DNA of 64,000 nucleotides. Origin: Morinoia aosen. Lineage: Eukaryota > Arthropoda > Malacostraca > Amphipoda > Talitridae. The notes under the pieces were generated by a model. The model had not been told where the DNA came from and did no database searches. It saw nothing but the letters and a program-made list of their open reading frames with translations. Made by a program: the position numbers and the translations under genes. Location: NCBI GenBank assembly GCA_030386875.1, contig CM059567.1:82949130-83013129 (forward strand), written 5' to 3'. Positions 1,162 through 26,000 of the stretch are shown piece after piece (within the stretch, counting starts at the first letter, position 1; each line of letters opens with the position of its first letter).

Positions 1162-1324
1162 AGGTCACGTGATCACCGTCACGCCATGCAGTGGCGTAGA
1201 GTCTGATCTGATCCTGGTGGGCAGAAATATCTTCAGCTTCGACGACGCAGAGGCTGAGTGTCGCAAGCTGAACGGCAGCCTGCCCTCCCCGGACCACCCT
1301 GATTACGAGCCCTTGAAGGACGAG
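1162..1324 (+). CDS. Receptor exon: C-type lectin domain, first half
   Basis: Acceptor cttcacag ends at 1161 and donor GTGCGA follows 1324. One base completes a split codon, then the frame reads through VTPCSGVESDLILVG and FDDAEAECRKLNGSLPS, the helix-2/cysteine region of a C-type lectin-like domain. It ends in phase 0. The coding stretch is clearly GC-richer than the DNA around it. Confidence 0.85.
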
Positions 1325-4300
1325 GTGCGAGGGTGACGTCAATACAATGTCAGCAAACGTACATGTTTCTGTTTTTTTTTTATTGTACTTGGGTTCTTCT
1401 TCTCCGTTGTTTTATGACGTAGCTAGGAGGTTATTTTATGCTCCAGTATTGTTATAAGGCATTTGAAAATCCAATGTATAAGGTGATATGTATCAGGCTT
1501 GAAATTGGAAATAAAGCATCCGTAGATGCCTTCATTATTATTATTAACAAAAAACGTACATGATAAGCATATCATCTCTACCCTTGTGACCATCTTGGTC
1601 TCGACTAGGAGCAAACGACTGATCCATGCGATTTGAAAATGTTAACATTTAAAAAAAAGTGTTCAAACTGAATACTCTTTACTGGCCACACCTTGCCTCA
1701 AGTCAATTGTTGAATTTTACATACATTTGCATTAAACAAGTTAAAAAAGAACGGGAAAAATGTACCCTATCTTATATTACATTAAAGTGAATAAAAAGAG
1801 GAAGTGAATGAAATGAGGTTTAATATTTTTAAGGTCGAGTCTGTCCTATGGACGATAAAGCTGAGCGACGTAAATGTGCTGATTTTCCTTAAAAAAGTAA
1901 GTTCCCAGGGGGCCAAGTTTCGGGCCAGTGTTATATAGTTATATTTTGCGTTTGTCATCCTATTTACTGCAAGCAATAATCACTTTTCTCTTCTCTTCTC
2001 TTTGCCGTAACCTAGCATTCTCTTTCCCAATTTTCCATATTCTGATTCAGAATCAATAATAATGAACGAGTAATATCAGTAATAATATCGTATAATTCAT
2101 TCATCTCGTTCTTCCCGCTGTCCGTTGGATTTTCTTTTAGAAATTACAAACAATTAGTGCGTTGGTCGTAATGCTGTGGGAAGCCCTCGGACTTTCAACC
2201 ACCAGTAATGTAGAGCAGAGGGCTTACATAAGAAATCATCGCTGTTCACTGCTCCTTGGAAAAATCTTTTCCCGGGCTCGTGGTACTAGTGTTTTCGTTG
2301 GCTTCGTAAATTTGATCACTTGTATCATTCACTGTAATATAATGCGTGCTAACATCTGGGTTTGCTTGCAGCTCTATCGCCGAGAGTCACAAGTAGTGTT
2401 TTGGATCAACGAGCGTTTCGAGAACAACACATGCGTGATGACCACCTACACAGGCACGGTGTACAGGTTCGCGTCGAATACCTGTGATTCAGCAGTATCT
2501 CAGCAGCTCGTATGCGACGTGAGTCTTTGTTCTTCTAACGCGTTCATGTCTGTGTCTGTCATGGAATCCACCCATGGGAGCCATGTTTACATACATGGTC
2601 ATAAATTACTTTAGGCGCGTTTTCTTAAAGACAGTGATCGGATAAGATATCATGCTGTGTTGGCCAGACGAACGAGAATTTTCATTTTGCAACTTGAGTT
2701 GAGCCTTCATCATCGTCTACAAAGATGTGTGTTTCTCACAAAGTCGACAAGCTGTCACAGTGAGAAACAACTTTCAGTTTGAGCGTTTTCAAGTTTCCAA
2801 TTAAATTCGCTTAAGCCTATATAGCAACCAAAAATTGTTGTTGTATTGCACAATGGTCGGTTTCATTGACCTTTTGCAGCCTTAGTTAAAAAATGGAAAG
2901 TTAAGTCATTCGTTTCAAAAAATGAATATTCGTTTTAAAACTTGCCTCGCCGAAATGAAAGTGCAGAGCAACTATGATCATGTTGTCAAAATTTTTCTAC
3001 ATCGTTCAACTCTTGCTTTTATTGAAAAAAATTATGCAACAACATACTCAGCTACATACGAATCCGAAGGAAGAATGGGCAATAGCCAAGACTTTCAGAA
3101 AATGCAATACAGTGTCCCCTCGCTACTGTGCTGTTCAATTATAGAGGATTCATTTCGAAAAGTTTCTAATCTATTTGTATTTATATTGAAAAATTATTGT
3201 GGGTTTTGTGAAAAAAAAACAAGAAAAATCGCTGTATTTGAAGACTCTAAACTTCTCATTATTCAATTTAAACATTATAAATAAATAGTATTTCCTAGTT
3301 TAAGAACAACAAAACCAGTTCGGCGTTGTAATGCAGACTGTGATTGGTGCTTGAAAGGGAGATGATAAATAACAGCTGCCCCCTTTCTGTATCTTCTACC
3401 TACCGATTCATATTGCGAGGGTTCACTGTATATCCGTATTTAGTAAAGGTTGTACGACGCAACGAGTGCTGCAATATGAACACATTATACCATTGAACGG
3501 AATAAATTCAACTAACGTCACATTGTATGTTCTAGATCCCTCAGAAAACCCTTTTCTACGCCCTTGGAAAAAGCCTGAAAAACTTCAGTCCGCTCTACCT
3601 GGACAAATGCGGTGTGTCGGGCTGTTTCCGGAAAATCTACAGAGACCAGATAAAGCTGAGCGACGATGGCAGCTTCTACGAATTTATTACCAGGAACCAG
3701 GAAAATGTCATGAAAGCAAAACCGGGGCACCTCGACATCCCTATTGGAAGATTTAACATCCATCAAGATGGATTTGACAAGGAAGAGGAGGTCGCGATAT
3801 CCATCTGTTTAGAGGTAGCCATCATTATTCCTTAGAGATTGTTCAAAACATTTGCCAACATGGGTATATTGATACATTTGAACGATCATAAACGATGGGA
3901 ATCATTTTCTGATTAACGATTGTTCATTTACCAGAGGTTTAATTTACAGTGCTATGTTACTTACGCGTTCCTATTCTCGATAAATGCATGCCCAAACTAC
4001 ATATATAGCAACACTGATTTAGAATACGTGTACCTATATAACTGAGAAATTCTGTTTTTACTTAACAAGACAACTGCTCACAATGATATTTTTACTATCG
4101 AATAACTCTACTGCTGCCAGTGTACGGGAGGAGTATTGACATAGCAGGTGTTGACAGGATATGGGCACTGCTGACACGAGTGTGTTGACAGAACGAGTTC
4201 ACCTGCTCGGACGGGTCTTGCCTGTCCGTGGCGCAGCACTGTGACGGTGTTGGGCAGTGCTGATGCCAGTGTACCTCGTGTGTTGACAGGACGAGTTCAC

Positions 4301-7300
4301 CTGCTCGGACGGGTCTTGCCTGCCCGTGGCGCAGCACTGCGACGGTGTGGGGCAGTGCTGATGCCAGTGTACCCCGTGTGTTGACAGGACGAGTTCACCT
4401 GCTCGGACGGGTCTTGCCTGCCCGTGGCGCAGCACTGCGACGGTGTGGGGCAGTGCTGATGCCAGTGTACCCCGTGTGTTGACAGGACAAGTTCACCTGC
4501 TCGGACGGGTCTTGCCTGCCCGTGGCGCAGCACTGCGACGGTGTGGGGCAGTGCTGATGCCAGTGTACCCCGTGTGTTGACAGGACGAGTTCACCTGCTC
4601 GGACGGGTCTTGCCTGCCCGTGGCGCAGCACTGCGACGGTGTGGGGCAGTGCTCAGAGGCTGAGGATGAGGACTGCTCCCAGAATGCGCTCCTGCCAGAC
4701 AACTACAACCCCACCAGGGCGCCCCAACTGAAGCTGCCAGTGCAGCTAAGGGTCCGCATTGGGAAAATATCTGACGTTGATATTTCCAACGGACGCCTCA
4801 AAGTTAAAATGGAGGTGAGCATTGTTTGGTGAAATGAATAAAATTTTTGATATTCTTTCAATGTCCTAAGTTACTTTATATTTTCTCAGTATTTCTGTTA
4901 TATTCTCCCTAAATTTAAGTGCAAGATCGTTCATTCAGTTGATAAGTTATTGTTAATCAACGATTTATAGCTTGGTAAATTTTGGAAGTTCAATGATTAA
5001 ATTTACTTCACACTATAAGGCTAAATTCTTAAAGCAGTAAGTTAATGTTATGACTCTTAAACTAATCGTTGATCTTCATACTCTTTGTTTCCTGAACCTA
5101 ACCATTTTCTCTAAAAAAGGTTACATCGAGTTACAAAGTTTTATCCTTGAGTTGAAACTGTTATTTATTATTTGCTTATGTCCATAAAACACGAAAAAAT
5201 ACTTGTATCCATTTCCAATTTGATTCGTGTCTAGGATAAGGATATTTTTTAAATTTACCTATTCTGATAGGCACAAAGTGGCAAATTTGAAGTTACACTT
5301 GGACAAAGTAGACCCGAAACGACACATAATGGAATAATTGCATTTATTTATTCTAGAATTTTAACGGTGAGATAATAGACACCTTGGAAATGAAAAGTTC
5401 TTCTAGATTTACGATCATACTGTATATTACTATCACGAATCAGCCCCCAAATGTAGTCTCCCATCATGTTCACATTATAAGACCCTTGGCAGCGGCATTC
5501 AAAGTCCAATATATCCTGGTGGAAGCGCTCGCCTTGCTCCTCGGAGTACGCTCCCATGTTTTCCTTGAATTTGTGAAGATTGGCGTCAAGGATATGGACT
5601 TTAAGGGACATCCTGCAAACCATCTTGCCGTAGTTTGTGACCAAGTTCTCAACAAGCTCTACATAGTTTTCGGCATTATGATTCTTCAAGAAGCCAAGAA
5701 CTACTGAGACAAAGCTGCCCATGCAGCTCTCTCTGTCCTTGAGAGTTTTTTTGGAATCTTCTCTGTCCTTATACATGACCTTTTTTATTTGTGGACTAAA
5801 AATACACCGGCTTCAAGTATCGCTACAGACAGCTTGGGGAAAAAATCTTGGAGGCACTTGAAAGCTGGGGACTCCTTGTCTAGGGCTCCGACGAATTGTT
5901 TCATGAGGCTCAGTTTTAAGTGGAGTGGAGGAAACAGTATTTTTATGGAATAGAACAATGGCCCCTATTTGACGTTGTTCTTTCCCACACTAAACTTGGT
6001 TCGCTGTGACCAGTCCCGCTTGAGGTAGTGTGTCATGATATCCCTGCTGTTCCAAAGGCAAAGATAAGTAGGGTACTTGGTAAAGCCGCTATGGAGATCC
6101 ATCAGGAAAGCCGCCATTTTGAAATCTCCTATGACCTCCCAACGCTTCTCTTCATATTTCAAGGACACTCTTGTATTCCTCTTTGAGCTGGGCAGAGTGA
6201 GCGAGGGGGAGAGATGGGTGCATATTCCCGTTATGAAGCAGCACTGCTTTGAGGCTTCTGTTTGAGCTGCCGATAAAGAGCCGCCACGTTTTGGGGTTAA
6301 GGGTAATTCAAATTGCGTCAAACAGATCGGTCACATTGTGGTAAAAGCAAAGCTCATCTTGACGAGGGAAAAGATGAAAAATGATGGTGACGCTTTTTCT
6401 GATGTAATATGGCGCACTTTCATCTAGCAAATTTCACTGCTTGAGTCTCGACGTCAAAAGCTCGCCATTTGACCTCGTGAGGTAAAGATCTCTGATCAGG
6501 CCTTGGCTGGGTAGTATGGAGTTCTCTCATCAGTTGCGTCTCTGAACGCCGGATCAGCGTCTTCATGTTCTTCTGAACTACTTTCCTTTTGTAAACACTG
6601 CCGCTCTCTCTTAGGAGGAATGGGTGAAAGGAGCCCAGAGCAGTGTGGCACTGGCACAATGGATAACAGAAGTTCAGGATATATGAGGGCAGGAGCATTT
6701 ATGCCTGCTCGACGTTCGGAAGGGTCTACCATACAGAAAAAGCATTGGCTTGAGTGATTAGTTGATTCCCTCCAAATACGGGGGATTACTAATTTCATAA
6801 CTTTGTTTTCCCCTCTGTACCAACTTGTAAAAAAGCGACATGAAAACATAGGTATAGAAGTACAGATACACTCAAATGGAAGTGAACTAACCTGTTGAGC
6901 AAACGTTCCCTGCATTTATACTCCCAAACACAGTACATTGCAAGAATGTGCTAGAACTTCGTAAAGCGTTTGCAAAGAAAGTTTTGAAGGTTCTGGAGTC
7001 ATCTAAAGTATTTTCTTTAATTTTTTCCCCAAATTTGTAAAGAATCTGTCTGGATTACTGGGAATAATTGAAATTAGCCCATTATAATAGGCTAGTGTCA
7101 AACCATCCCTGGCCAGTTTAGAAAAATCAAAGTTTAAAGAGAATAATCATTATATTCTTGTTTTTCTAGAGAAGGAAATAGAAATTAACATTAACTGACC
7201 AAAGACAGAAAAAAGTTAAAAATTTTGTTACACTATGTATTGTTTAAGTTATTGCCAATCAACGATTTATTGTTCGGTAAATTTTGGCAATTCAGTGATA

Positions 7301-8275
7301 AAATTTGCTTCAAACTCTGAGGTTGAATTTTTATAACGTGTAGCTGAAGGTTAAAGCTAAGACTGCTTAGCTAATCATCGATCTTTTTACTCTTTAAATC
7401 TGAAATTCATTATTATCTCTAAATAAGATTATAACTATTTCAGCTGCACACTTTGTGGACTGACAAGCGGATGCAGTTTGTCCAGCTCGTGGAGGAGCTG
7501 CGGGAGAATAAAATTACGGAGGACATCTGGTATCCTAAATACCGCATACAGCCCCTCATCTTCAACAATGAGATCGACTACCGCAACGGCAACCGCTCCA
7601 TCTCGAACTTCTACGCCAGCCTCACGGCATCTGGACCTCTCACCACCATCCTAACTCAGAGAAGTAGTCTCGCCTTCTCCCTAGTTTTAAGACACTGTCG
7701 TTTGGAAGAACCATAAAACACAACAATTAGATGGTGCTTTGTAGGGATTGATCCTGTTAAAATACTATATATATTGATGTATGAAGGATATTTTCAATTC
7801 ATTGCTACTAGTAATGCAGCCATGTGTGCATGGCTTCTTTAAAAAAGTAAGCTCCCTGTAGAAAGTACGCTTCCCTGTGCCGTCAACAAAAAGAAAACAC
7901 AATTTCATAGAAAATTTATTGTATCAGATGCAGCACATGTTGCACTATTTTACAACAAACTGCTTTCACCACAAAAGAGACATTTGTCACCCAGTGGAAT
8001 CAACATTTGTCTACCTGTGTCACAGAGCTTGTTGTGTGGGATAGGTACCAGTGTATAACAGTCAATTGTCAGTTCCGGCAAGTTTCCGTAATTAACCGAG
8101 CTTGAATATTTTCGCAGAGCGTTTTTTTGACGCACAGATGGTTCACGAGAAGGAGGTTTCTTTCACTTATATCTGCGACTTCGACCTCTGTGTATACCCA
8201 TTTGGTGTGTACCCGTGCCAGTACAACATCAGCATGGAAAACAAACGCACCAATGACCCCTACTTCAACATGTCT
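1162..8275 (+). CDS. Partial mosaic receptor: C-type lectin + LDLa + Cys-loop channel ligand-binding domain
   Basis: Six in-frame exons: 1162-1324, 2372-2518, 3536-3814, 4584-4814, 7444-7663, 8118-8275. The joined protein carries a C-type lectin-like domain (FDDAEAECRKLNGSLPS, then FWIN and a terminal LVCD). An unrecognised segment follows, then one LDLa repeat (CSDGSC, CDGVGQC, EDEDC). Next comes the start of a Cys-loop receptor ligand-binding domain: LPDNYNPTRAP, LHTLWTDKRMQF and a loop CDFDLCVYPFGVYPC with exactly 13 residues between the cysteines. Established knowledge: this fold forms the extracellular part of pentameric neurotransmitter-gated channels. The gene is incomplete. Its start is upstream, and no exon for the rest of the domain or the four membrane helices was found before the convergent gene ending at 13848. 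It is either a channel with distant exons or a truncated or secreted binding protein. The ligand is unknown. Confidence 0.85.
1451..1546 (+). repeat. SINE 3' tail fragment
   Basis: This is the tail of the tRNA-derived SINE seen complete at 60018-60305 and on the minus strand at 62536-62812. All share GTTATAAGGCATTTGAAAA near the start of the tail and AATAAAGCATCCGTAGATGC near its end. The tRNA-like head is missing. It sits in the intron between the two lectin exons. Confidence 0.8.
2372..2518 (+). CDS. Receptor exon: C-type lectin domain, second half
   Basis: Acceptor tgcttgcag ends at 2371 and donor gtgagt starts at 2519. The 49 codons are in phase 0 at both ends. The exon encodes VVFWINERFENNTCV and closes with SQQLVCD, the WIN-type core strand and the last disulfide cysteine of the C-type lectin fold. 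The usual EPN or QPD calcium/sugar motif is not visible, so classical carbohydrate binding is doubtful. Confidence 0.88.
3536..3814 (+). CDS. Receptor exon: unrecognised module
   Basis: The open frame encodes FYALGKSLKNFSPLYLDKCG, CGVSGCFRKIY and GRFNIHQDGFDKEEE. Phase 0 at both ends fits the flanking exons. The acceptor could be at 3535 or 3544, and the donor after 3814 (GTAGCC) or after 3790 (GTCGCG); all options keep the frame. I do not recognise the domain. It lies between the lectin and LDLa modules, where related arthropod proteins carry extra extracellular modules. Confidence 0.65.
4192..4583 (+). repeat. 98-bp tandem repeat made from the LDLa exon 5' end
   Basis: Four head-to-tail copies start at 4192, 4290, 4388 and 4486, followed in register by the true exon at 4584. 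A shorter degenerate copy precedes them at about 4150. Each unit holds the intron end tgttgacag, a splice acceptor and the first part of the LDLa exon, up to CAGTGC. It then reads TGA where the true exon reads TCA. 98 is not a multiple of three. The copies are nearly identical, so the expansion is recent or kept uniform by conversion. Confidence 0.95.
4584..4814 (+). CDS. Receptor exon: LDLa module and start of channel ligand-binding domain
   Basis: Acceptor ttgacag ends at 4583; donor GTGAGC starts at 4815; 77 codons, phase 0 at both ends. Residues 1-31 form a full LDLa repeat with six cysteines and the calcium-binding acidic cluster EAEDEDC. The remainder reads NALLPDNYNPTRAP and then the first beta strand LRVRIGKISDVDIS, typical of Cys-loop receptors. 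The exon therefore physically joins the LDLa module to the channel domain. Confidence 0.92.
5348..6915 (-). pseudogene. Decayed copy of a recurrent arthropod repeat-encoded protein
   Basis: In minus-strand order, fragments read PRIWRESTNHSSQCFFCMVD (about 6750), PSKWRLFI-like and LLHNGN pieces (about 6250), YTKYPCFLCLW-like pieces (about 6080), a LSLMKQFVGALDKESPAF-like piece (about 5900), and finally an open 142-codon stretch with MSLKVHILDANLHKF and GAYSEEQGERFHQDI. I recognise this block order from a high-copy uncharacterised protein in many arthropod genomes, probably transposon-derived. Frameshifts and stops break this copy. It lies wholly inside the receptor intron, antisense to it. The molecular function is unknown. 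Confidence 0.75.
7444..7663 (+). CDS. Receptor exon: Cys-loop ligand-binding domain, middle
   Basis: Acceptor actatttcag ends at 7443 and donor gtagtc follows 7663, leaving a one-base split codon. It encodes LHTLWTDKRMQFVQLVEELR, then DIWYPKYRIQPLIFNNEIDY and LTASGPLTTILTQ. The W-x-D-x-R element and the following W-x-P are standard landmarks of the ligand-binding domain in ligand-gated channels. The donor is weaker than those of the neighbouring exons. Confidence 0.88.
8118..8275 (+). CDS. Receptor exon: signature Cys-loop
   Basis: Acceptor ttttcgcag ends at 8117, donor gtgagt starts at 8276. The frame continues from the previous split codon and reads RFFDAQMVHEKEVSFTYI followed by the loop CDFDLCVYPFGVYPC, then ISMENKRTNDPYFNMS. 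The aspartate usual after YPF is glycine here (YPFG), and a third cysteine lies inside the loop. This is the last exon of the gene that I can read. Confidence 0.9.
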
Positions 8276-9424
8276 GTGAGTTCCCGCGACTTGAGGGATG
8301 TTGAATTTAGGTGTTAATGGGTGGTAGTACACGGATTGTATTTTTAGCTCACTATTTTCTCTAAAAAAAAATAGAGCGATCAACCGCTATCCATCTCTCC
8401 TTTCCTATTCTTAAATTTCGATTCAAAAATCATTAACACAAGTTGCATCTTAGCTCGCTGACTTCCCCTCTTTGCTTTTTTCTGTTCGTCATATAAAAAA
8501 AAAATTTTATCGGTTCGATGAGGCCTTTCCAATATACCAACTTTTCAATACCTTCGTCATGTAGAAGGCAGACGCCTGTCCTGTCAGATAGTTTGTTATA
8601 ACAGTATCTTTATTTTGACGATGTAACATTGAGTGTACAAAATATTACTTTTTCAATTTTGTGTTCTAACTTCACAAGCTTTTTCCCCATAAAATATTTA
8701 TCTATTCAATTAGAGCTTCAAGGCAGCATTTTTCTCATATCTCTGCTTTCCGAGTGGACCAGAATTAATTCTATACTGTTCATCTATACTTTAATATTAT
8801 AACCAATGCTACTGAATTGAACTTGTGCTCAGTAACTCGTGTTAAATAACTCAGCAGTTATTTCAGCGCTGAGGGTTAACCTTTAAGTATTTTAGGAAAT
8901 ATAGAAGAATATAGCACTAACATGTACGCATACGCATGTAGGCAACACATAAGAAGGCTTTAGGAGTCTCCTCACATATATTTAGGCTTAAGTCAGTTCA
9001 ATCAGTACTTCAATTTAGATAATGCAAACGAGAGTATATGAAAAAGGAAAATGGAAATAATATTATATCAGAATAGATGGACTTGGGTTGCATGATAGAA
9101 GTAAGGTCTGACTCAGCCTCTGTCTAGGCAGGGCTATGTACTGTACAGTGTTGTGCAAGGACGTCATCGCCGCTCAGCACTACATGAGTAATTGAAGGCT
9201 GAACTAGGGGCTCCAAAACTGCTATGGGGCTGCAAAACTGCTACAAAACTGTTCGATGTTGCTACATGGTGAAACTTAATTTTAAAACTAACAATTGACA
9301 ATATATAAAAGTCGCTAAAAATACTTACTTGTGGCAGAAAGTACATGAATTGTTTTCAGTCGCATTTTCTCCTGCAGCTGCAGTATAAATTACAAATTGA
9401 TGAGATCCATATATGTGACTGTAA
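8276..9424. other. Non-coding stretch, nothing recognised
   Basis: No exon encoding the missing channel transmembrane segments was found on the plus strand. No known element is evident on either strand. Confidence 0.4.
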
Positions 9425-10830
9425 CCCACGTTTTCTGACGCACACCGTGCGCAACAATATTTATACATGACAGAGGAGAGCATGCCTTTGGGCAGTTTGT
9501 CCTTGGAATAAAAATTGGATCCTGTTTTATAAACATTAACCAATACTATTTTCACACGTTCGCCGCGTTTCCGTGTCTGTTAACGGTTGGTTTGTTAGGA
9601 AATCAGTAGCAGAATAGGGAAATCTATTTTTCAACACTAAATTTTAATTCTCCTTGACGAATATGAAAAATACAATTGCACGATAACATTTACATCGTAT
9701 GATAACAATTATTTTTCAAAAACGTCTCGTAACAAATGAAATGTCGTACATTTATACCGGCGCGTAAATGGGCAATTTACCTGTTGGTACACATGTGGCC
9801 CAATACGCAGGGAGCGTGTTAAAGTTCACATGTAATAAGTATTTAGACAGCAGCAAGTGAAGATATTTTTTGAGCTTCTCAGACTGCTTGCCAAGCAACG
9901 GAAATGGAAAATAAAGTGGTTTCTTACGAACAGTAGGAAATGGTGCGCGGGAATAAAATTTATGATTTAAAAAAATCTTGACACATGAAGTTACCAGTGA
10001 TCATGAAGGAAAACCATCTTAACTAAAAAACAATTTCAAAAACTCGAGTTCGCTTTGAATGATATGAAATCGAGAGCAGACACTTTAGGCCCTTGAGAGT
10101 AATGTTCTGACACTGTTCATTTCAAATATAAATGGGCAGAAACTAAAGAAATTTATTCCTAGACCAGTGAATGTTAGCCTGCGAACAGAACTTTTAGAAC
10201 GGCCATCTTTGAGGCTAATTTTCTATCCAAATATGAGAGAGAATTGCTTGTCTCCGTTTAAACAGTTATCTAAATATCGGGGTTTTGAGAGTTCAGATAT
10301 GCCAAAAATAAATTACACTGCATGGGACTTTTGAACAGTAAGAAAGTATCGTCTATGTATCGTCTGTAAAATACCGGCTTGAAATCTAGAGGACAAGAAT
10401 TAAGCCATCGTTGTTCGTGATAGCACATGGATATATTAGCTAAAGTGCGTTCCAGTGGCAGACCCATACCCAATCCATCAAATCGTTGATAAAATTTGTC
10501 ACCAAATATAAAAATGAATTAAGAACAGAGAGCTGCGGGAGGGTTTTGAACAGAGGCTTTGTGAGGCCAATGACTAAATCAAAACAAGCAAACGAGTAGT
10601 TTAGACAAATGTTAATTGTTTCATGTAATGGGATATTAGTAAATAGGCTCTCGACATCGAAAGAAACCATAAAGAGTTTACTCGCATTTTAAAGAAAGTC
10701 ACTTCGTCAACAAAAGATTTTGAATTGGGCACAGTATGCATGTTACCAGTGAATGGTGATGAAGTAGGGACTAAAAATTTAGTGAGGTTGAACAGACGAT
10801 GCATAGACGATCCATTTTAACTGTTCAAAA
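9425..10830 (-). mobile_element. Penelope-like retroelement, minus-strand copy, degenerate
   Basis: Reading down the minus strand, the reverse-transcriptase palm is clear: SFDVESLFTNIPLHETI near 10650, MGLPLERTLANISMCYHEQ near 10440 and YRRYIDDTFLLF (the catalytic Y-x-D-D) near 10370. Further down comes the start of the GIY-YIG endonuclease, KDKLPKGMLSSV then KYCCARCASE, near 9470. Penelope-like elements are the retroelements that join this type of RT to GIY-YIG. Frameshifts separate the pieces and the copy stops at about 9425. The inverted partner starts at 10905. Confidence 0.88.
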
Positions 10831-10904
10831 CTTCCATGCATTGTAATTTATTTTTGGCCTATTTTAACTCTAAAGTTAAACTATGTTTGCTATGTTAAAC
10901 TTAC

Positions 10905-11920
10905 CTATGTTTGCTATGGAAACGGAGAAACGCAATTCTCTCTCATTTTTGGATGGTAAAATTACCCGCAAAATGGTCGTTTCCAAAGTTCTATTTTTCG
11001 CAAGCTAACGTTCACTGGCCTAGGAATAAGTTTCTTTAGTTTCTGTCCATTTATATATGAAATTAACATTGTCAAAACATAACTCTCAAGGGCCTAAAGT
11101 GTCTGCTCTTGGTTTCATATCATTCATAGCGAACTCGAATTTTTTAAATTGTATTTTAGTTAAAATGATTTTTCTTCAGGACTGGTACCTTGATGTGTCA
11201 AGAATTTTTTAAATCATAAATTCTATCCCCGCGCACCATTACCTACTGCTCATAAGAAATCACTTTATTTTCCATTTCCGTTCTTTGGCAAGCAGTCTCA
11301 GAAGCCGAAAAAGGATCTTTACTTGTTGCTGCCTAAATTTATTTTACATGTGGACTTTAAATAGTATTGGTTAATGTGTATAAAACAGGGTCCAATTTTA
11401 ATTACAAGGACAAACTACCTAAAGGCATGCTCTCCTCCGTCATTTATAAATATTGTTGCGCTCGGTGTGCGTCAGAAAAACGTGGGTTCGACCATTCAAG
11501 CTCTGGATATTTGTGTGGCTGGGCATGCCGGTAGGAGTTAGCGAACCAAACAATTACTCTCTTCCCCTTCCCAATCTGCTCTTCGCTCTCATGCAGAGAG
11601 TTGTGACCTTCCAGCTCGGCTAGACGATTTTACAGTAATTTCTTCTGTATGAGGTGCAATAAACCTTCTGATTCTAGAATCCTTGTTCATTTTAAAAGAT
11701 AAACCTATTTTAAACCTCTGTATCGTCTGTGGTAAATAAATTGTTTAAATTGTTTAAACAACACGCAATCAGCCTTCCCTGTGTAATTAGTGTAGACTCT
11801 TTGTCTCTTTTTTTCATGAAAAAATCCATAGATGAATATATTTTGACTTTGTTATAACTCTATATTTATGCGAATTTTTCAGAAAGTTGAGGATGACCAC
11901 AACAAATTGGTCGAAACGTT
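10905..11920 (+). mobile_element. Penelope-like retroelement, inverted plus-strand 3' copy
   Basis: The sequence repeats 9425-10260 in reverse orientation (for example GGGCCTAAAGTGTCTGCTCT against its complement near 10090). It runs further into the endonuclease C-terminus: KDKLPKGMLSSVIYKYCCAR, then RSHAESCDLPARLDDFTVIS and ILESLFILKDKPILN. The frame is broken. With the minus copy it forms a large imperfect inverted repeat, a layout common for Penelope-like elements. A hammerhead-like motif lies at its 3' end. Confidence 0.85.
11884..11918 (+). ncRNA. Hammerhead-ribozyme-like motif at Penelope 3' end, degenerate
   Basis: GAGGATGACC, a spacer, then GGTCGAAACG: a GACC/GGTC stem closed by CGAAAC. 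This resembles the stem II plus GAAAC core of hammerhead ribozymes reported in Penelope-like elements. The CUGAUGA half of the core is mutated. The same layout recurs at four other Penelope 3' ends in this window. The fold has not been tested. Confidence 0.45.
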
Positions 11921-13847: not shown

Positions 13848-14086
13848 TCATTGGCATGGAGGAAGGCTCGTGTTCGGGTCGAAACAGAAGACGCACTCCT
13901 CGTCATTCTCGGTGCAGCGCACTGGATAAAATGAGATGACGTCATTGTTGACATGCATCTCTGCGCAGTTGTCGTTTGCCTGAGGCCTCATTTCCCACTT
14001 GACCTGTCCCAGCTCTGACATGTCAGGCAGCCACCGCCACACACCATCATCTCCCCGGCGGATGTTCACGTAGAAGTAGTTTTGAT
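13848..14086 (-). CDS. Lectin terminal exon
   Basis: Acceptor ttaccgccag precedes 14086. The frame encodes [40 protein letters not shown] and [13 protein letters not shown], with stop TGA at 13848-13850. It supplies the WxW strand and the last cysteines of the C-type lectin domain. Confidence 0.92.
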
Positions 14087-17000
14087 CTGGCGGTAAAGTT
14101 CCATGATTTTATATTTAATCATTGGGTGTCACAACAACTGGCCTCATATACTGAGCGAAAATGTAAAGGCTTAAGGGGCTTGCACACGATTATTATAGAT
14201 CACTACAAATAAAATCACCAAGGCTGGTACTCTCTAAGTCAACATTGTTAAAATTATTTATTACAGTCGGATTTTGAAAGGTAAACGTTTCGAGCACCAG
14301 GCTCATCATTAATACAAATTTTCTGAAAATAACACAACCAAGATGAATAGAAGAAAATATACGTGAAATAAACACGGAAGTAAAACATGCTCCTACTAAA
14401 ATCAAGTGCAAAATATATACAAAGGGTGGGCACTATATGTTTCATTAAGAGGTTGTTTAAGTTCAAAAATATATAGGGTCTCTAAAATTCTTGAATCATG
14501 CTGATGGCTGGCTGAAGCCAAAATGATAAAATTACTGCACTGTACACTGGAGCCGCACTTTTCATTACGGAGGCGCACCGAAGAGTGGGCAAGAATCCCT
14601 CCAGTTCGGCCACTCCGTCCAGCATATTCCCCTACTCTGACGCCCAAAGTTCTGCAGGTCGAGCCTACATAAATAGATGCACATCCTTGATATCGAAATT
14701 CATATATATAAGAGAGCGGCGCATGCTGGAAGGTAATTTATCTTTGTAGTTGAAAAATGAACCTATAGTAAATTTGTTCGTAAGTTCTCAGTTCTCATTT
14801 GTTCAGATTTAGGCCCAAAATATGAAAATGATAATATAATCTGTTTCTTGTCCTATCGAAAAAATTGGAAGGTGAGCTTTACTTGAAATTTTAACAAATT
14901 TTGTTAAAGAATTAACTAAACCAGCAGGATAACCATTATTCTTGAAAAAATTACACAAAAAAGAGAATTCATCCTGGAGTAAATTGTTTTTTGAACACAT
15001 AGCAAAGGCTCTAAGTGACAAGGTTTTAATGCTATTAATTTTAAAAATATTTGGTATGAAACTAAAAAAACTAGTGCTGAGTCCCGTAAAAGTAAGTTTT
15101 CGGTAAACAGAAGTTTAAAAATTCCGTCGTGTTTAAAAATTAGGGCATCTAGAAAATAAACCTCACTACCCACCTGTGGTTCAATTCTGAACCTGATATT
15201 GCTATGTTTTGAATTCAAATAATCAAGAAGTGGGCCTTATTGTGCGGCGGCTGGCTTAGCGTATCGTGGCGATCCTCATCTTGGAAACTGCCCGCACGCA
15301 CCGAAACAAACGAATGCGTTAGGCATTGATAACGATTTGAAGCCTGTCGATTCAGATAGAGTGATCTTCAATTTTAGTTGTCGAAATTTCTCCTCGGTGT
15401 AAAACTATTTTAGCTTTCGGGCTAGATTTCTGCCATCCTGTTTTTCATTTAGACTTTTATAGATATTTTTTACCCTCGGGAATAAATGTTTGACCGAATG
15501 AAAATTTTCATTCTCACTGCCACTTCAAAGTCAATTTATTTTTAAATAAAGTCCAATCAATTGCTTATAAGTATTTTCATGGCTTCAAGCCCTACAAAAT
15601 ATTCTCCCCTATTTTTAGAAAATTAGATTTTAAGATTCTCAAGGATTTAGCTGCGAATAAATCTATTATCACCTGTGAGCCTGAAAAAGGACTGGAATTG
15701 TACTTATTGACAAGTGTGTTCATACTGCTGTAATGAAGAGTATTATTTCCGATCCGACTAAGTTCTCTGTCATTGCTGCACCAGTAGAAAAATTCTCACG
15801 TAAAATTTAGGATAAAATTTAAAAATTTTTGCGGCTACTCAGAAATAAGAAACTTATAGCTGATGATCTCTATAAAAGACTTTATATTCCTGAATCAGGA
15901 CCAGGAATTCTCTATCGACTCCCTAAAATTCATGAAGCAAATTTTTTGACTAATTTTCCACTCCGTTCAATATTTGCTACTTAAAATACTGCTAGTTATC
16001 AAATGTCCAAGTTCCTTGTACCGATTTTAGCACCTATTGTAGTAAATGATTATTGAGTGGATAATTCCCATTTTTTTGTCAACAGGCCTAATTTATTCAC
16101 ACATGCAGAAAAATACCACATGGCTTCTTTTGATGTAGAGAATCTTTTCACTAATGTACCCATTACTGAAACCATAGATATATGTTTAAGCCTTTCATTT
16201 ACCAACCAGTCTTAATTGCACTGTGATTGGCCTAACTCGTTCCCTTTTTAAAACCTTCTTAAAGCATTCTGTTTTGAATTAATTCTTTTGTTTCAATGGG
16301 AAATTTACAAACAGATCGGTGGACTGGGTCCTACCACTGGGCTTGCCACTCAGTCCTACCTTCGCAAACATTTTTATGTGCTACCATGAGACCAAATGGC
16401 TGGCTGATCGAGTGCCCCCCTCAATTTCGTCCTATATTTTATAAGAGATATATCGATGATAATTTTATGATTTCGCACTACCCATCCCATTCTCCCCAAT
16501 TTCTTGATTATTTTAATCCAAAACATTGCAATATCAGGTTCAGAGTTTAAACACAGGTAGGTAGTAAGATTTTATTTCTTGATGTACTAATTTCTCAACG
16601 CGACGGAATTTTCTTAACTTCTGTTTACCGATAACGAACTTTTTCGGGACTCAGCACTAGTTTTTTAGTTTCACACCTAATATTTTTAAAATTAATAGCA
16701 TTAAAACCCTGTTACTTAGAACCTTTAATATATGTTAAAAAAAGTACTCCTAGATGAATTTTGTTTTTAGTGTAATTTTTTTCAAGAATAATGGCTATCC
16801 TGCTGGTTTAGATCATTCTTTAATAAAACGTTTTTTAATTTCAAATTTAGCTCACCTTGCAGTCTCTTCGGTAGTACAAGAAGCAGATTATATATACCAT
16901 TTTCATATTTTGGGCCTACATCTGAACAAATGAGAACTGAGCTTGTCAAAATTCGTCACTCGTATTTACTTGATGTGGATTTTATAATAATTCTCACGAA

Positions 17001-20000: not shown

Positions 20001-23000
20001 CGTTTATTCGGCCATATGTCAACCCTTTGCTTACCGACGGGAACTCCAGTTCCCAGATGGCTAGTGCTTCCAGTTTAGGGAAATATACAAAATTTCAGGG
20101 TAATTCAACTAGTAGGGAAATAATTTGAAGTAAATGTCAAAATTAGGGCAATTAATAATATTCCTGCAACTATTTTTTTGACACTCCAGATGTTTGACTT
20201 GCGCAATTTGCTATTGATATCCCCTTAATGTAAGATTCATGGTCTATGCAAAACATTTATTACCTTTTTTTAATTAACTTGAGCAAGTTTTTCATACGTC
20301 CATGTATTTACAAATAAAATTAGGCAAAAACTAAATTGATATTTTTTCTCAGATTTTTCGGCTATTTTTTTGGCGTCGAAGCATACATTTCTGAAGCAAT
20401 TTTTTTTTCAATTTAACACTCTGACCACGGAGTGGGACATATGTGTACCACTTGGTAAATTGTTCATACACCCACCAGTGTAAATGTATACCATTTCAAA
20501 TCATTTTGCGACCTCTTTTGAAGAAATTTGATCATACCATGAAAATATTATTGAGCTCTTACATTTTGTACATTTCTTACAAAGGACAGAAACTTATTCA
20601 AGCAAATAAATCTATTTCACCAGTCTGTTTTTTACAACCGAACCAAATCAATTTTACAACACGCGCAACCGTATTCAACGTGTTAAAAAGAAAGTAAGCA
20701 CCTGCTTATGCAGAAAAAAAACATGATAGGGCAATTTTGCTGATATTTCAGGGTAATGACTGATATTACCTTAGAATTTTTTAAAAATTAGAGCGTTGGG
20801 AAGGAAAGGGTTAAGGGATTACAATATTGAAGACATACATTCCCGTAAACTTCATAATCTGGTCTCCGCTGAATACTTCGTTTGTCCCCGACGGAATAAC
20901 GATCCTTAACACCCCATAAAATTTCTAACTTTAGAGCATTAATCTATTCGCCAACATGCCAATGAAGATCCACCAACCGTTCCAACACGCAAAAGTATAC
21001 AGGATACAGGGTATCATAACCTGATGGCACAAACTTTGACAGTGTGTTTTAAAATCGATACGATTAACTTTTTCAGGAAAAAAGGAAAATCAAACTTTCT
21101 CTGTTTTCGACGCCTCGAATCGTGAGGGCGGAAAGTCCATGAAAAATTCTAACTCTCTGTGTGCGGTTAGATCTCCTAACTCTGGCAACATCTGTCTTCT
21201 GAATTGATCGTTTGCTATCAGTGGACACTGAAAAATAATATTATTGCTCCAGTAAAATCGCTGGAAAAATATTGAGAAGGTTGAAATTAATCATATTTAG
21301 TCAAGTTGAGTGCGCAGGATTTATTGCGTTAATCCACGAGCGTTTTATCTTGTACGGGAATCGCTTCTACCAGAAATGCATTGTTGAACAGTGAGAATAT
21401 CTTGTCCCCAAGCAGTAAATCCAGTTGGGTTATAAATTTCATCACCTACGGCTCTGGGGACTGCCCCACCATGGTTAAGTAGACCCCTCCTGAACTTTGA
21501 GATTCGACACCGTGAATCCGATGAATGTTTGAATTTTTACTCGTTTATGAATAATTCCTTCTCATTAGTTTCATGTTGACCGTTACAATATTGACAATTA
21601 GATTTCAATTGCTACCCATATTTTATTTAGATGTTTCCAGTGCGTATCAACAACTAAACTGCATGCAAAGGAGAAAAATTAGGTGACAGTTTGCCACGCA
21701 ACACCTTATTCCTTGACTGCTATCGTAAATCTTTCTTCAGGTAAAACTTTCCTACTACAATGACTTTGCCACGTGCCAATAGCATGAGTAACTGTAAAGG
21801 CATCGCGTACTCACTGGTGCCGAGCAGCGCAGGGTTGCCGATGATGGAGCTATTCTCGTACAGAGAGCGGGAGGCGACAGGAAGGCCCCGCGCCTCACAT
21901 CGAGCCTCGGCCTCACAGAAGCCCACTGTGGTGGAGGCGCACTCCGCCACCAGACAGTAGCCCTCGGAGGCCTGAGAGCAGCAAGTGTCCTGTTGCGGCA
22001 GCTGCACTTCCGTCACCAGGCGTCGGTTCGCATCTGAATCAATTGTAAACTCATTACGATTACTACATTAATTAGCTCGAAACTCCCTAGCCACAACAAA
22101 GACGATCTCAAGGGAGCAAAGAGAAGGGAGAGCATCTAGTAAGAACTTTGGAAAATAGGGAATCAATACCAAAGGTGTGTACTGAAACAGGATACTCAGC
22201 GCATGGAAACGACAAGGTAAGAATTTCGAGTAAGAAAAAAGAGAAGGATGGTTAAGACATCATGAAAGCTGGAAGAAACAAGGTGGGTACGGAATGCAGA
22301 AACCAGGACACTAACGGTGGAGACTAAATAACACAACATGTTGAATAAATCACCACATTCTACATTTATAAACCCCGTAAAATTACGAAAATTAGACTTT
22401 AAATAAACACTAGTATAAAAAGGTTATTAAGAAATCTAAACCCACATATATCTAATAGAAAAAATATATATGCACATGTATAATAAAACGTGAACAAAAG
22501 TTTACAATAACCGACTTTTTTCTCGATATTCTACATTAAAATTAGAGTTTAAGTATACTAGAATGTTCTAATACATTCAAATATTTGGCAACCAAACTTT
22601 CGTCAGCTTTCATCTTGAATAATATATGTGTCTTTGGTGCTGCAGCTCTCGTTCTGAAGGGTCGTAAGCGTTGGTAAGAATATCAGCTAAGGCCTTCGCG
22701 AACGTATGGTGGAACTCCATAAAGAGGGAATAGGATATCGGAAGACATGTGCACAATTCTGTGTTCCTATAGCCTCGGTTAGAACCATCATGCGTAAGTA
22801 GAAATGCCGGAATAAGACTCTCGGCAAGCCTCGAAATGGCCGTTCGAGGAAATTAAACGCCCGTGCTGTTCGAAAATTGATCCGACCTGTATCGCAGAGG
22901 CCTTTAACTACTCGAGAAGAATTGAAGGATGATCTCATTGTATCCCGGATCGAAGCCAGCAAACACACAATCAGCAGGGCATTACGCCGAGATGATCTTC

Positions 23001-26000
23001 GCTCCCGCACCCCTCCTGGGACACCTCTTCCACAGAAACGTTATGTCAAGGTCAGGCTGAATAATGCCAACAGCCATTTAAACGAGCCAGCTGCATTTTG
23101 AAACTCAGTACTGTGGTCAGATAAATCTAAAATCGAATTATTCGGGAGAAACAACATAAACCATGTTTGTAGGCAGCAAAACGAAAAGTGTAAACCAAAG
23201 TGCATCATACCCTCTGTTAATCATGGTGTGAGGATGTTTCAGCTCACAAGGAGTAAGCAAACTTCACATCATTGAAGGAACTATGAATGGCAGGAAATGT
23301 TAAGAAATACTGGAAGAGCAACTCATACCTTCACCTCGTTTATCAAAATGGAAACGTAGATGGACCTTCCAGCATGACAGCGACCCAAAACATATTGCAA
23401 ACGAAAACGAAACCAAGGAATGGTTGAAGATGAAGAAGATGACGTTTTAGAATGGCCAAATCAATCCCCGGACATGAATCCGATCGAAAACCTGTGAAGG
23501 AATTGAAATTGAAGATTGAGAAGAAAAGGTTCCTAAAATATCACTGAACTCGAAGAAATTTGCATTGAAGGATGGAATAAAATTACACCCGAAACTTTTA
23601 AAACGCTGGCAGTGAACTACTCTAAACACTTCGAAGCCATAATTAATTATAACGGCTATGCAACGAAATATCAATGTAACTTTTGTTCAATTCTTTATTA
23701 TACGTTTTCCGACGTATTTTTTTGATTAAATATTTGTGGGCTTTAGATATACGAGGCCTATCTTATAAGTATCCGACCTTTGGGCAGAAAAAGTATTTCG
23801 AATACCTGATGGAGTTGGGACCCTAATCCCCTTCAAAGGAGGCCCCTTGTGCTTGCATGCACTTAGCCCACCGATCCTTCCACTACTGGAAACACCTCTG
23901 GAAGTCTTCTTTTGGAATGGTGTTCAGCTCTGTTGTCGCGTTCCGCATTATCTCTTCTCTACTCTCAAAACGGGATCTTTTCAGTGGCGTCTTCAATTTT
24001 GGAAACAACCAGGATGATAACTGGAGATGATTTATTGTACGGGTACGACCTAAAAACAAAAAGACATTCGTCGCAATGGAAGCATCATGATTCTCCAAAG
24101 CCGAAGAAAGTGCGGCAGGTTCAAAGCAAAATCAAGGTGAAGCTGACTGTTTTCTTTGATGTCCGTGGAATTGTGCATCACGAATGCGCACCGGAAAGAC
24201 AAACAGTAACAAAAGAGTACTATCAAGGTGGTCTCCGGAGACTCCGTGACGCAGTTCGGCGCCAAAGACCAGACATGTGGACGACGAACAGCTGGCACTT
24301 GCATCATGACAACGCCCCTGCACATTCATCCCAATTGAACCACACTTTTTTTGCCAAACATGGAATTACAACCATTCGCCAACCTCCCTACTCTTCAGAC
24401 CTGACTCATTGCGACTTCTGGTTGTTTCCAAAATTGAAGATGCCCCTGAAAGGATCCCGTTTTGAGAGTAGAGAAGAGATAATGCGGAACGCGTCGACGG
24501 AGCTGAACACCATTCCAAAAGAAGACTTCCAGAGATGTTTCCAGCAGTGGAAGGATCGGTGGGCTAAGTGTGTGCCAGCACAAGGGGCCAACTTTGAAGG
24601 GGATTTGGGTCCCAACTCCGTCAGGTATTCGAAATATTTTTTCTGCTCAAACGTCGGATACTTTATAGGCAAGCCTCGAATCATTAGCCTTTTTATACTA
24701 TTTTTTTAAACAGGGTGTTTCAAAAAAAGAGGTACAAAATTGCACACCAAGCAGAAAATGGCCAAATAAACACTTTTTCTTCCATGAAATTTTCCGAAAA
24801 AGAATTTTCGTTACAAACATTTCTATTCTATGAGAGATTAGTATAATGAAATTTAGTTTTAGGAATATTTTGCCAAAACGTTTTAGCAAAAAGGTTTTAA
24901 CAGGTTCTAGATCGTGCGACCAGGTTACTTCTTTTTTGTCTTGTTGGCACAGTTCATATGTACCTTGCTTATAATGTTGCTAATGACAATGCGAGACAGG
25001 CAACTAGGCTGTATCAAGAGCAGTTTCCTAACCGATACATACCTGGCCATAGAAAGTTGAAGAATCCACACCAAAGGCTACGTGACAAATGGGAGTTTCA
25101 AAATTACCAGAAGAGAAACTGGACGCCCAAGGGATGAAAATTTTGAAGAGGTTGTGCTTGATTCTTTTCGTAGCAATCCAAGGACTAGTACGCTTAGAAT
25201 TGCGGCAGCTCTAGAATTAAAGGGCTACTGTAGTGCTTGGAGAATCATGAATGATAATAATTTCCATTTATACCACTTTCAAAGAGTTCAAGCATTGAAT
25301 CCTTGAAATTATGAAGAACGAGTGCAATTTGCAGAGTGGTACCTTTACAAAGAATTGCAAGAACCTAACTTCTCCGAAAGTGTATTGTTTTCTGATGAAG
25401 CAACATTCACTCGCGAGGGAGTGTTCAATTCCCCCAATGAACATGAATGGACATATGAAAATCCTCATATCGTCCATATACATTCGCCCCAGCAACGGTA
25501 CAGTGTAAATGTTTGAGCTGGTATCATCCATAACCAAATTATCGGACCTCATAATATACCATTGCCTCTCAACAGAAATAATTACAGAGTTTCATTAGAA
25601 GAAGTACTTCCCGAGTGACTCGAAGATCTACCATTTGCAATAAGAAGAAGAATGTGGTTCCAACATGATGGTGCTCCTGCACACTACCATTTTATTGTCC
25701 GAAACTATCAGAATGGTCAATTTCCTAATAGGGGGATCGGGCGAAATGGTCGTGTTGCATGGCCTCCAAGATCTCCTGACATGGCTTCACTCGATTTCTT
25801 TTTTGGAGACACATGAAGAGCCTTGTTTATGCTACACCCATTGAATCTGAGGAGGATCTCGAACCAGAATCGCAGTGGCTCCTGGTGAGGTTTCTAAAAT
25901 GCCAGACGGGTTGTTTATTATCCGGTAGCCGTTGAGGCTAAGTTTGGGAAAGTGCATTGATGTAGGTAGAACACATTTTGAACGATTTTTATAAAGTAAA

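What the first reader, a model, noticed from the sequence alone, without database searches (positions are those of the whole stretch)
1162..8275. Cys-loop receptor ligand-binding domain fused to C-type lectin and LDLa modules
The exon structure joins a lectin fold, an unknown module, an LDLa repeat and a channel ligand-binding domain in one reading frame. One exon (4584-4814) carries both LDLa and channel sequence, so the fusion is not an annotation artefact. The Cys-loop has an extra cysteine and YPFG instead of the usual YPFD. Ligand and partners are unknown.
Basis: partly seen in the sequence, partly recalled or inferred. Interest (0 to 1): 0.75.

Follow-up and report, generated by a model that had tools for sequence, protein, structure and literature searches.

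The report
Truncated copy of lectin-fused channel receptor
The fusion of lectin-like, LDL-receptor-like and nerve-type channel domains is real and belongs to a large crustacean receptor family of a kind already reported, but the copy in this window has lost its pore and part of its binding domain and is probably a broken duplicate.

Summary
The six exons are real: open frames, matching phases, AG/GT borders. Joined, they pass Pfam's cut-off for Neur_chan_LBD and give sub-threshold LDLa and lectin matches; a family profile confirms the lectin fold. The fusion is no artefact: two paralogues carry the modules in one uninterrupted frame. The genome (hemocyanin points to a malacostracan crustacean) has about 80 LDLa-LBD places by hand count; 71 of 81 have a pore exon within 30 kb downstream.

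Similarity to pore-bearing paralogues stops at 9421-9423, where a palindromic RT-like element starts.

Best reading: a disabled, 3'-truncated member of the crustacean pattern-recognition/Cys-loop chimeric receptors (recalled from the 2021 lobster genome paper, not readable here). Interesting family; ordinary copy.

The parts
1162..1324 (+). Exon E1: N-terminal half of a compact C-type lectin-like domain
   Evidence: Open frame, acceptor AG before 1162, donor GTGCGA after 1324; CTLD by Pfam 16.7 bits with E2, below cut-off, and by family profile against PDB, best 1.2e-10
2372..2518 (+). Exon E2: C-terminal half of the C-type lectin-like domain; with E1 it has the four cysteines invariant in the 8 aligned segments
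   Evidence: Open frame, phase 0, TGCAG / GTGAGT; invariant C33, C75, C92, C102 of alignment A2
3536..3814 (+). Exon E3: module X (no Pfam or PDB match), ending with the first cysteine of the LDLa domain
   Evidence: Open frame, 93 codons; no Pfam match; family profile A1 finds no PDB sequence below E=0.45 and no coherent Pfam family
4180..4653 (+). 98-bp tandem array, 4.8 copies: each copy holds an exon-4 acceptor plus the first ~75 nt of exon 4; the upstream copies run into TGA
   Evidence: TRF score 906, 98% matches; sequence; in the list such partial matches occur only here and in the 80.13 Mb copy
4584..4814 (+). Exon E4: LDLa cysteines 2-6 followed by the start of the Cys-loop ligand-binding domain
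   Evidence: LDLa 20.6 bits on this exon alone (below cut-off 24.1); LBD match begins at joined residue 235, inside this exon
7444..7663 (+). Exon E5: ligand-binding domain, middle part
   Evidence: Open frame; within the LBD match of the joined protein; paralogues
8118..8275 (+). Exon E6: ligand-binding domain with the Cys-loop (C-x13-C, YPFG, one extra cysteine); last family exon found in this copy
   Evidence: Open frame, donor GTGAGT; the four paralogues read lack the extra cysteine
9423..11488 (.). Palindromic mobile-element-like insertion (two head-to-head pieces, RT-like) at the point where similarity to the pore-bearing paralogues ends
   Evidence: Inverted arms 9423-9551 / 11359-11488 (one search gives 9431-9551 / 11359-11479); RVT_1 24.3 bits, below cut-off 29.6; similarity to C12a/C12b ends at 9421/9423

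Best explanation
The window holds the middle part of one member of a large crustacean receptor family. Fuller members read: pentraxin/laminin-G-like module, compact C-type lectin-like domain, module X, LDLa, Cys-loop ligand-binding domain, then transmembrane helices M1 to M3 (M4 seen by eye in one member). Intact members most likely assemble as pentameric ligand-gated channels whose lectin-like head binds a surface or soluble ligand and whose Cys-loop domain gates a pore (inferred; nothing here tests gating, ligand or selectivity). In the window copy the last LBD exon and the pore exons are missing beyond a mobile-element junction, and the exon linking the pentraxin-like module to the lectin module is interrupted. 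The likeliest account is a disabled duplicate that was under coding constraint for most of its history, was broken, and was then copied once more on the same chromosome (or is held twice by the assembly).
For: Shown: open six-exon chain and LBD above cut-off. Fusion in single frames: L046 has Pentaxin 35.1, LDLa 35.4 and LBD 32.2 bits, all above cut-off, in one frame. Pore exons in paralogues: M1 at C12:56536301, 56584231, 56612329; M2-M3 at C12:56538607, 56585316, 56613872 and at five C14 places; L045's 258-codon exon hits Neur_chan_memb at 39 bits and GlyR/GABA-A/GluCl in PDB, best 1.5e-14. That genome-wide search with a C12b pore probe, which finds its three C12 and five C14 relatives, lists nothing near C12:80.14 or 82.96 Mb. 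Locally, a C14a M1 probe scores 70.5, 66.6 and 102 bits in C12a, C12b and C14b but at best 21.6 in the window plus 40 kb upstream and 20 kb downstream. 71 of 81 LDLa-LBD places have a pore exon within 30 kb downstream; the window copy and its duplicate have none within 75 kb. Similarity to C12a and C12b ends at 9421-9423 and their downstream sequence is not found again; their exon 7 lies beyond that point. The linking exon has insertions of 2 and 1 bp relative to both and a stop in the family's frame; the duplicate has no gap against the window there. Past constraint: Ka/Ks 0.32 against C12a over 396 codons and 0.29 against C12c over 243; window-branch Ka 0.032, Ks 0.167.
Against: All six exons are still intact and the window-branch Ka/Ks is low (about 0.19), which a gene still in use would show; a recent loss gives the same picture (neutral P(no stop) 0.61 at 1% divergence). 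Against C12b, itself broken, Ka/Ks is 0.67 over 179 codons. The broader pore searches are also silent at this locus, but they miss the C12:56 Mb and C14:71 Mb pore exons too, so they carry no weight; likewise the L045 pore probe used locally. For the duplicate, absence of a pore rests alone, since it was fetched only to C12:80142000. No transcript data; no search was made for an alternative first exon or a new last exon. Pfam does not recognise the C12 pore exons by themselves; their identity rests on homology through C17 loci and L045.
Confidence: 0.72

Rival explanations
1. The locus is a working truncated gene that makes a soluble ectodomain (lectin-like, X, LDLa, partial LBD) from an alternative first exon and a new last exon, acting as a secreted recognition protein or decoy for the intact receptors.
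For: Six intact exons with intact splice borders; low window-branch Ka/Ks.
Against: The LBD lacks its last exon, which holds the stretch after the Cys-loop up to M1, so an AChBP-like binding pocket is unlikely; no alternative start or end exon is known (none was searched for); the identity of the two copies over 10.5 kb covers introns as well as exons, so it is no evidence of selection on the exons.
Confidence: 0.13
2. The locus is an intact receptor gene and the missing exons, the stop and the double copy are assembly errors (haplotype duplication or misjoin at the palindromic element).
For: A near-identical second copy 2.8 Mb away (99.1% over 18.1 kb), with an abrupt change from 1.6% to 0.03% divergence, could be an uncollapsed haplotype; palindromes can cause misjoins (recalled).
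Against: Both copies carry the same insertions and the same junction; in the 29 contigs held, the strongest matches of the subfamily pore probe lie in the C12:56 Mb and C14:71 Mb clusters and none lies at this locus.
Confidence: 0.11
3. Lectin exons and channel exons belong to two separate neighbouring genes.
For: No transcripts were available to exclude it at this locus directly.
Against: Single-frame paralogues hold the modules in one exon; the LDLa domain is split across E3/E4 and E4 also holds LBD sequence; exon order is the same in C12a, C14a and C14b.
Confidence: 0.02

Closest known systems
Crustacean chimeric receptors coupling pattern recognition and neurotransmitter binding (American lobster genome, Polinski et al. 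2021, Sci Adv eabe8290; recalled, paper not held)
   Same: Recognition-type extracellular modules fused to a neurotransmitter-binding domain; large LGIC expansion (recalled). Held papers report LGIC expansion and, as separate items, pentaxin and C-type lectin expansions in Homarus (PMC13286009, passages read) and 374 ligand-gated ion channels in Cancer borealis (PMC11708212, passages read).
   Different: The module order in that paper could not be checked here. This copy lacks the pore and part of the LBD.
Glycine/GABA-A/GluCl branch of Cys-loop receptors
   Same: The pore exon of paralogue L045 matches GlyR alpha-2 (1.5e-14), then GABA-A and GluCl; the LBD passes Pfam's cut-off.
   Different: No P-A-R before M2; an acidic residue precedes the M2 arginine in L045 and, across the C12b exon junction as I read it by eye, Asp. 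Added N-terminal modules. YPFG instead of YPFD.
Cephalopod chemotactile receptor CRB1 (PDB 8eiz)
   Same: Best PDB sequence for the window's LBD part, whole-sequence E=0.0076.
   Different: Weak match (best single stretch i-Evalue 0.64); CRB1 is not known to me to carry lectin or LDLa modules (recalled).
Acetylcholine-binding protein (soluble pore-less LBD; recalled)
   Same: A Cys-loop LBD without a pore, if the truncated copy is made.
   Different: Here the LBD is incomplete: the last exon was not found.

Membership tests
Cys-loop receptor (pentameric ligand-gated ion channel) | Ligand-binding domain (PF02931) | tested here: met
   31.2 bits, cut-off 26, on the joined exons; profile positions 10-144 of 216 only, the rest of the domain is in an exon not found here
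Cys-loop receptor (pentameric ligand-gated ion channel) | Cys-loop, two cysteines 13 residues apart | tested here: met
   Exon E6 sequence
Cys-loop receptor (pentameric ligand-gated ion channel) | Four transmembrane helices M1-M4 | tested here: not met
   No pore exon found for 75 kb downstream of the window copy; M1 to M3 met in paralogues; M4 not tested beyond reading L045 by eye
Cys-loop receptor (pentameric ligand-gated ion channel) | Pentameric ligand-gated conductance | not testable with these tools
   Needs expression and recording
C-type lectin-like domain | Fold-defining cysteines and profile match | tested here: met
   Four invariant cysteines in 8 of 8 aligned segments; PDB profile hits, best 1.2e-10; Lectin_C matched by 7 of 8 segments at E<=1, in this copy below cut-off
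C-type lectin-like domain | Calcium/sugar motifs (EPN or QPD, and WND; recalled) | tested here: not met
   Not present in the E1-E2 protein, read by eye; the long-loop stretch is short
LDLa | Six cysteines and the acidic C-terminal cluster | tested here: met
   Six cysteines across E3/E4, acidic cluster partly kept, read by eye; Pfam 19.5-20.6 bits, under the 24.1 cut-off; above cut-off in L046 and L050
Crustacean chimeric pattern-recognition/Cys-loop receptors | Recognition modules and Cys-loop LBD in one protein | tested here: met
   Single-frame paralogues; exon chain in the window
Crustacean chimeric pattern-recognition/Cys-loop receptors | Complete receptor with a pore | tested here: not met
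   Window copy is truncated and its linking exon interrupted
Crustacean chimeric pattern-recognition/Cys-loop receptors | Expression as one transcript | not testable with these tools
   No transcript data on hand

The most novel reading that the evidence does not exclude
The pore-less copies are not dead: they make a secreted lectin-X-LDLa-partial-LBD protein that competes with, or presents ligand to, the full-length chimeric channels, so that this crustacean runs a receptor-decoy pair within one family.
Probability: 0.07. Interest if true: 0.6.

Novelty: new member of a known kind. Interest (0 to 1): 0.33.

Why it matters
The fusion links the head of an immune-type recognition protein to a fast channel, and this genome holds about 80 LDLa-LBD places (hand count). 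That makes a testable case for direct ion-channel sensing of surface glycans or microbes in crustaceans. This particular copy matters mainly as a warning: exons that look perfect can belong to a locus that cannot make the channel.

Tried and rejected
Purifying selection since the duplication: E1-E6 have 0 differences in 1197 bases between the two copies, against 149 in 18315 elsewhere, which looked like strong constraint. The position profile in the same call shows that introns are just as identical from window 0 to 10546 (3 differences), so the inference was dropped.

Pore searches with general probes (PF02932; L045 pore exon) were first taken as evidence of absence; they also miss the C12:56 Mb and C14:71 Mb pore exons (one search shows only a weak M1 match in C14a and C14b), so only the subfamily probes count.

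Identity of module X: no Pfam match, PDB profile best E=0.45, and a single-sequence AlphaFold2 model of E3 with mean pLDDT 46, judged too poor to search.

Literature: nine searches; no listed title or start of abstract described this architecture. The lobster genome paper is not held. In PMC13372173, PMC9391574 and PMC11294593 only the passages returned were seen; they do not mention it. This covers this library only.

Separate-genes hypothesis: rejected by the single-frame paralogues. Chelicerate origin: the hemocyanin exon scores 723 bits to PDB 1hc1 (spiny lobster, recalled) against 303-326 for 1lla and 3ixv (chelicerates, recalled).

Full report
WHAT WAS CLAIMED. A Cys-loop ligand-binding domain fused to C-type lectin and LDLa modules in six exons, window 1162-8275 (+).

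THE EXONS. The six exons were read in all three + frames. With corrected borders they are E1 1162-1324, E2 2372-2518, E3 3536-3814, E4 4584-4814, E5 7444-7663 and E6 8118-8275; each has an AG before and a GT after, phases agree, and the chain has 399 codons without a stop. Pfam on the chain gives Neur_chan_LBD at 31.2 bits (cut-off 26), LDLa at 19.5 (cut-off 24.1) and, for E1+E2, Lectin_C at 16.7 (cut-off 22.6); E3 alone and E5+E6 alone give nothing. The LDLa match runs from the end of E3 into E4, and the LBD match begins inside E4, so E3, E4 and the channel part are tied together. A profile of eight family lectin-like segments finds 52 PDB sequences at E<=1, mostly C-type lectins, best 1.2e-10. 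E3 is a module that neither Pfam nor PDB recognises.

THE GENOME. The window lies at C12:82949130-83013129 of a held 1.99-Gb genome in 29 contigs. Its hemocyanin scores 723 bits against PDB 1hc1 and 712-719 against 6l8s, but 303-326 against 1lla and 3ixv; from recalled organism names this says malacostracan crustacean, not chelicerate. The E3-E6 protein finds 128 places in this genome at E<=0.1 (132 of 222 candidates scored, so a lower bound). By my hand tally, 81 of these 128 rows cover LDLa and the start of the LBD in one match (query start <=92, end >=150), the window and its duplicate included; many lie in open frames of 400-590 codons.

THE FUSION IS REAL. Of seven further loci fetched, L046 and L050 show the modules in one uninterrupted frame: L046 has Pentaxin 35.1, LDLa 35.4 and LBD 32.2 bits, all above cut-off; L050 has LDLa 26.4 (above cut-off), with LBD 22.7, Laminin_G_3 23.3 and Pentaxin 13.6 (all below). 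The lectin-like part between them rests on alignment. L045's second exon holds the Cys-loop and a pore: Neur_chan_memb 39 bits, PDB best GlyR alpha-2 at 1.5e-14. All six exons occur in the same order in C12a (C12:56515001-56545000), C14a and C14b; in C12c only E3-E5 lay in the DNA held, and C12b lacks part of E2 and E3-E4.

THE UPSTREAM PART. Three stretches upstream of the window match the C14 and C12 paralogues, at about window -3660 to -3486, -3312 to -3178 and -2975 to -2785. The first two together give Laminin_G_3 at 22.0 bits (below the 27.6 cut-off), in line with the pentraxin/LamG module of the single-frame members. The third links that module to E1. In C12a and C12b it is open; here it carries insertions of 2 and 1 bp relative to them, and the family's frame meets a stop. 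The duplicate shows no gap against the window there, so it shares the lesion. Exons before these three were not identified.

THE MISSING PORE. In the stretches fetched, C12b (from C12:56560001) has M1 at 24231-24356 and M2-M3 at 25322-25486; C12a (from C12:56515001) has M1 at 21301-21426; C14a and C14b have M1. An exon between E6 and M1, with the rest of the LBD, is conserved in C12a, C12b and C14a. A genome-wide search with the C12b pore probe lists 100 places (all 108 candidates scored), with three C12:56 Mb genes and five C14 genes at the top, and none near C12:80.14 or 82.96 Mb. A C14a M1 probe scores 66.6-102 bits in C12a, C12b and C14b and at best 21.6 in the window with 40 kb upstream and 20 kb downstream. 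The more general pore searches are silent here too, but they also miss, or barely see, the C12:56 Mb and C14:71 Mb pore exons and so prove nothing. Of 81 LDLa-LBD places, 65, 71 and 74 have a pore exon on the same strand within 15, 30 and 75 kb; the window copy and its duplicate are among the seven without one at 75 kb (coordinates typed, pore matches up to E=1). For the duplicate, whose DNA was fetched only to C12:80142000, absence rests.

THE JUNCTION. Collinear DNA similarity of the window to C12a ends at 9421 and to C12b at 9423, the start of a palindrome with arms 9423-9551 and 11359-11488 that encodes RT-like pieces (24.3 bits, below the 29.6 cut-off). The paralogues' sequence beyond that point is not found again from window 9000 to 20 kb past its end, apart from one inverted 103-bp match; other short matches are out of order. 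The duplicate is identical across the junction.

THE SECOND COPY. C12:80.13 Mb matches the window region at 99.1% over 18.1 kb. Divergence is 1.6% left of window 0 (130 in 7942) and 0.03% right of it (3 in 10547) (my sums). So the identical exons say nothing on selection after copying. This may be a segmental duplication with conversion, or a haplotype held twice.

SELECTION. Ka/Ks of the window exons is 0.32 against C12a (Ka 0.136, Ks 0.425, 396 codons), 0.29 against C12c (243 codons) and 0.67 against C12b (179 codons; C12b is itself broken). On E3-E5 the window branch has Ka 0.032 and Ks 0.167. Intron divergence is 0.188 to C12a and 0.144 to C12b. In a neutral simulation, 1194 bases stay free of stops with P=0.61 at 1% divergence and 0.045 at 7%. 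So the exons were constrained for most of their history; a recent loss fits, and continued use is not excluded.

YPFG is shared by C12a, C12b, C14a and C14b, and L045 has FPFG; among those read, the extra cysteine is in the window copy and its duplicate only. The 98-bp array (4180-4653) repeats the exon-4 acceptor; the upstream copies run into TGA, so only the last leads on.

MECHANISM. Intact members: a pentraxin/lectin-like head on a Cys-loop channel. That the head recruits a ligand and the LBD gates the pore is inferred from the domains. The compact lectin domain lacks the recalled calcium/sugar motifs, so classical sugar binding is unlikely. An acidic residue before the M2 arginine in L045 hints at cation selectivity (inference from recalled GlyR mutants). 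The window copy itself cannot make a channel as it stands.

NOVELTY. The kind is known: the 2021 American lobster genome paper (abstract recalled, not held) announced chimeric receptors coupling pattern recognition and neurotransmitter binding in decapods and other crustaceans. PMC13286009 (passages) reports LGIC, pentaxin and C-type lectin expansions in Homarus as separate items. I file this as a broken new member of that kind.

Noticed in passing
window 4180-4653: 98-bp tandem array of exon-4 acceptor plus partial exon 4 (4.8 copies),'s list found only in this copy and its duplicate; the unit is not a multiple of three and the upstream units run into TGA.
   Followed up: partly
window -8000 to 10546 against C12:80.12-80.14 Mb: Two copies whose divergence changes abruptly near window position 0, from 1.6% to 0.03%: conversion, very recent duplication, or an assembly haplotype switch.
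   Followed up: partly
window 9423-11488: Palindrome of two head-to-head pieces with RT-like frames on the minus strand (Penelope-like by eye, recalled; Pfam RVT_1 below cut-off).
   Followed up: partly
C12:56560001-56590000 (L040-L042): Paralogue C12b keeps pore exons, but the 3' half of E2 and all of E3 and E4 were not found in its 30 kb: a different lesion in the same cluster.
   Followed up: partly
window 13848-14108, minus strand: Open frame with a C-type-lectin-like pattern by eye; no Pfam match at E<=0.5.
   Followed up: no
window 5348-6915: Intron E4-E5 holds long minus-strand frames; part of the stretch (about 6164-6920) is also in paralogue C12b; the 5348-5812 frame has no Pfam match better than E=0.078, below cut-off.
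   Followed up: no
G000:C23:9.01-9.06 Mb and C13:64.80-64.90 Mb: Two hemocyanin clusters, 5 and 10 matches in open frames of 256-586 codons.
   Followed up: no
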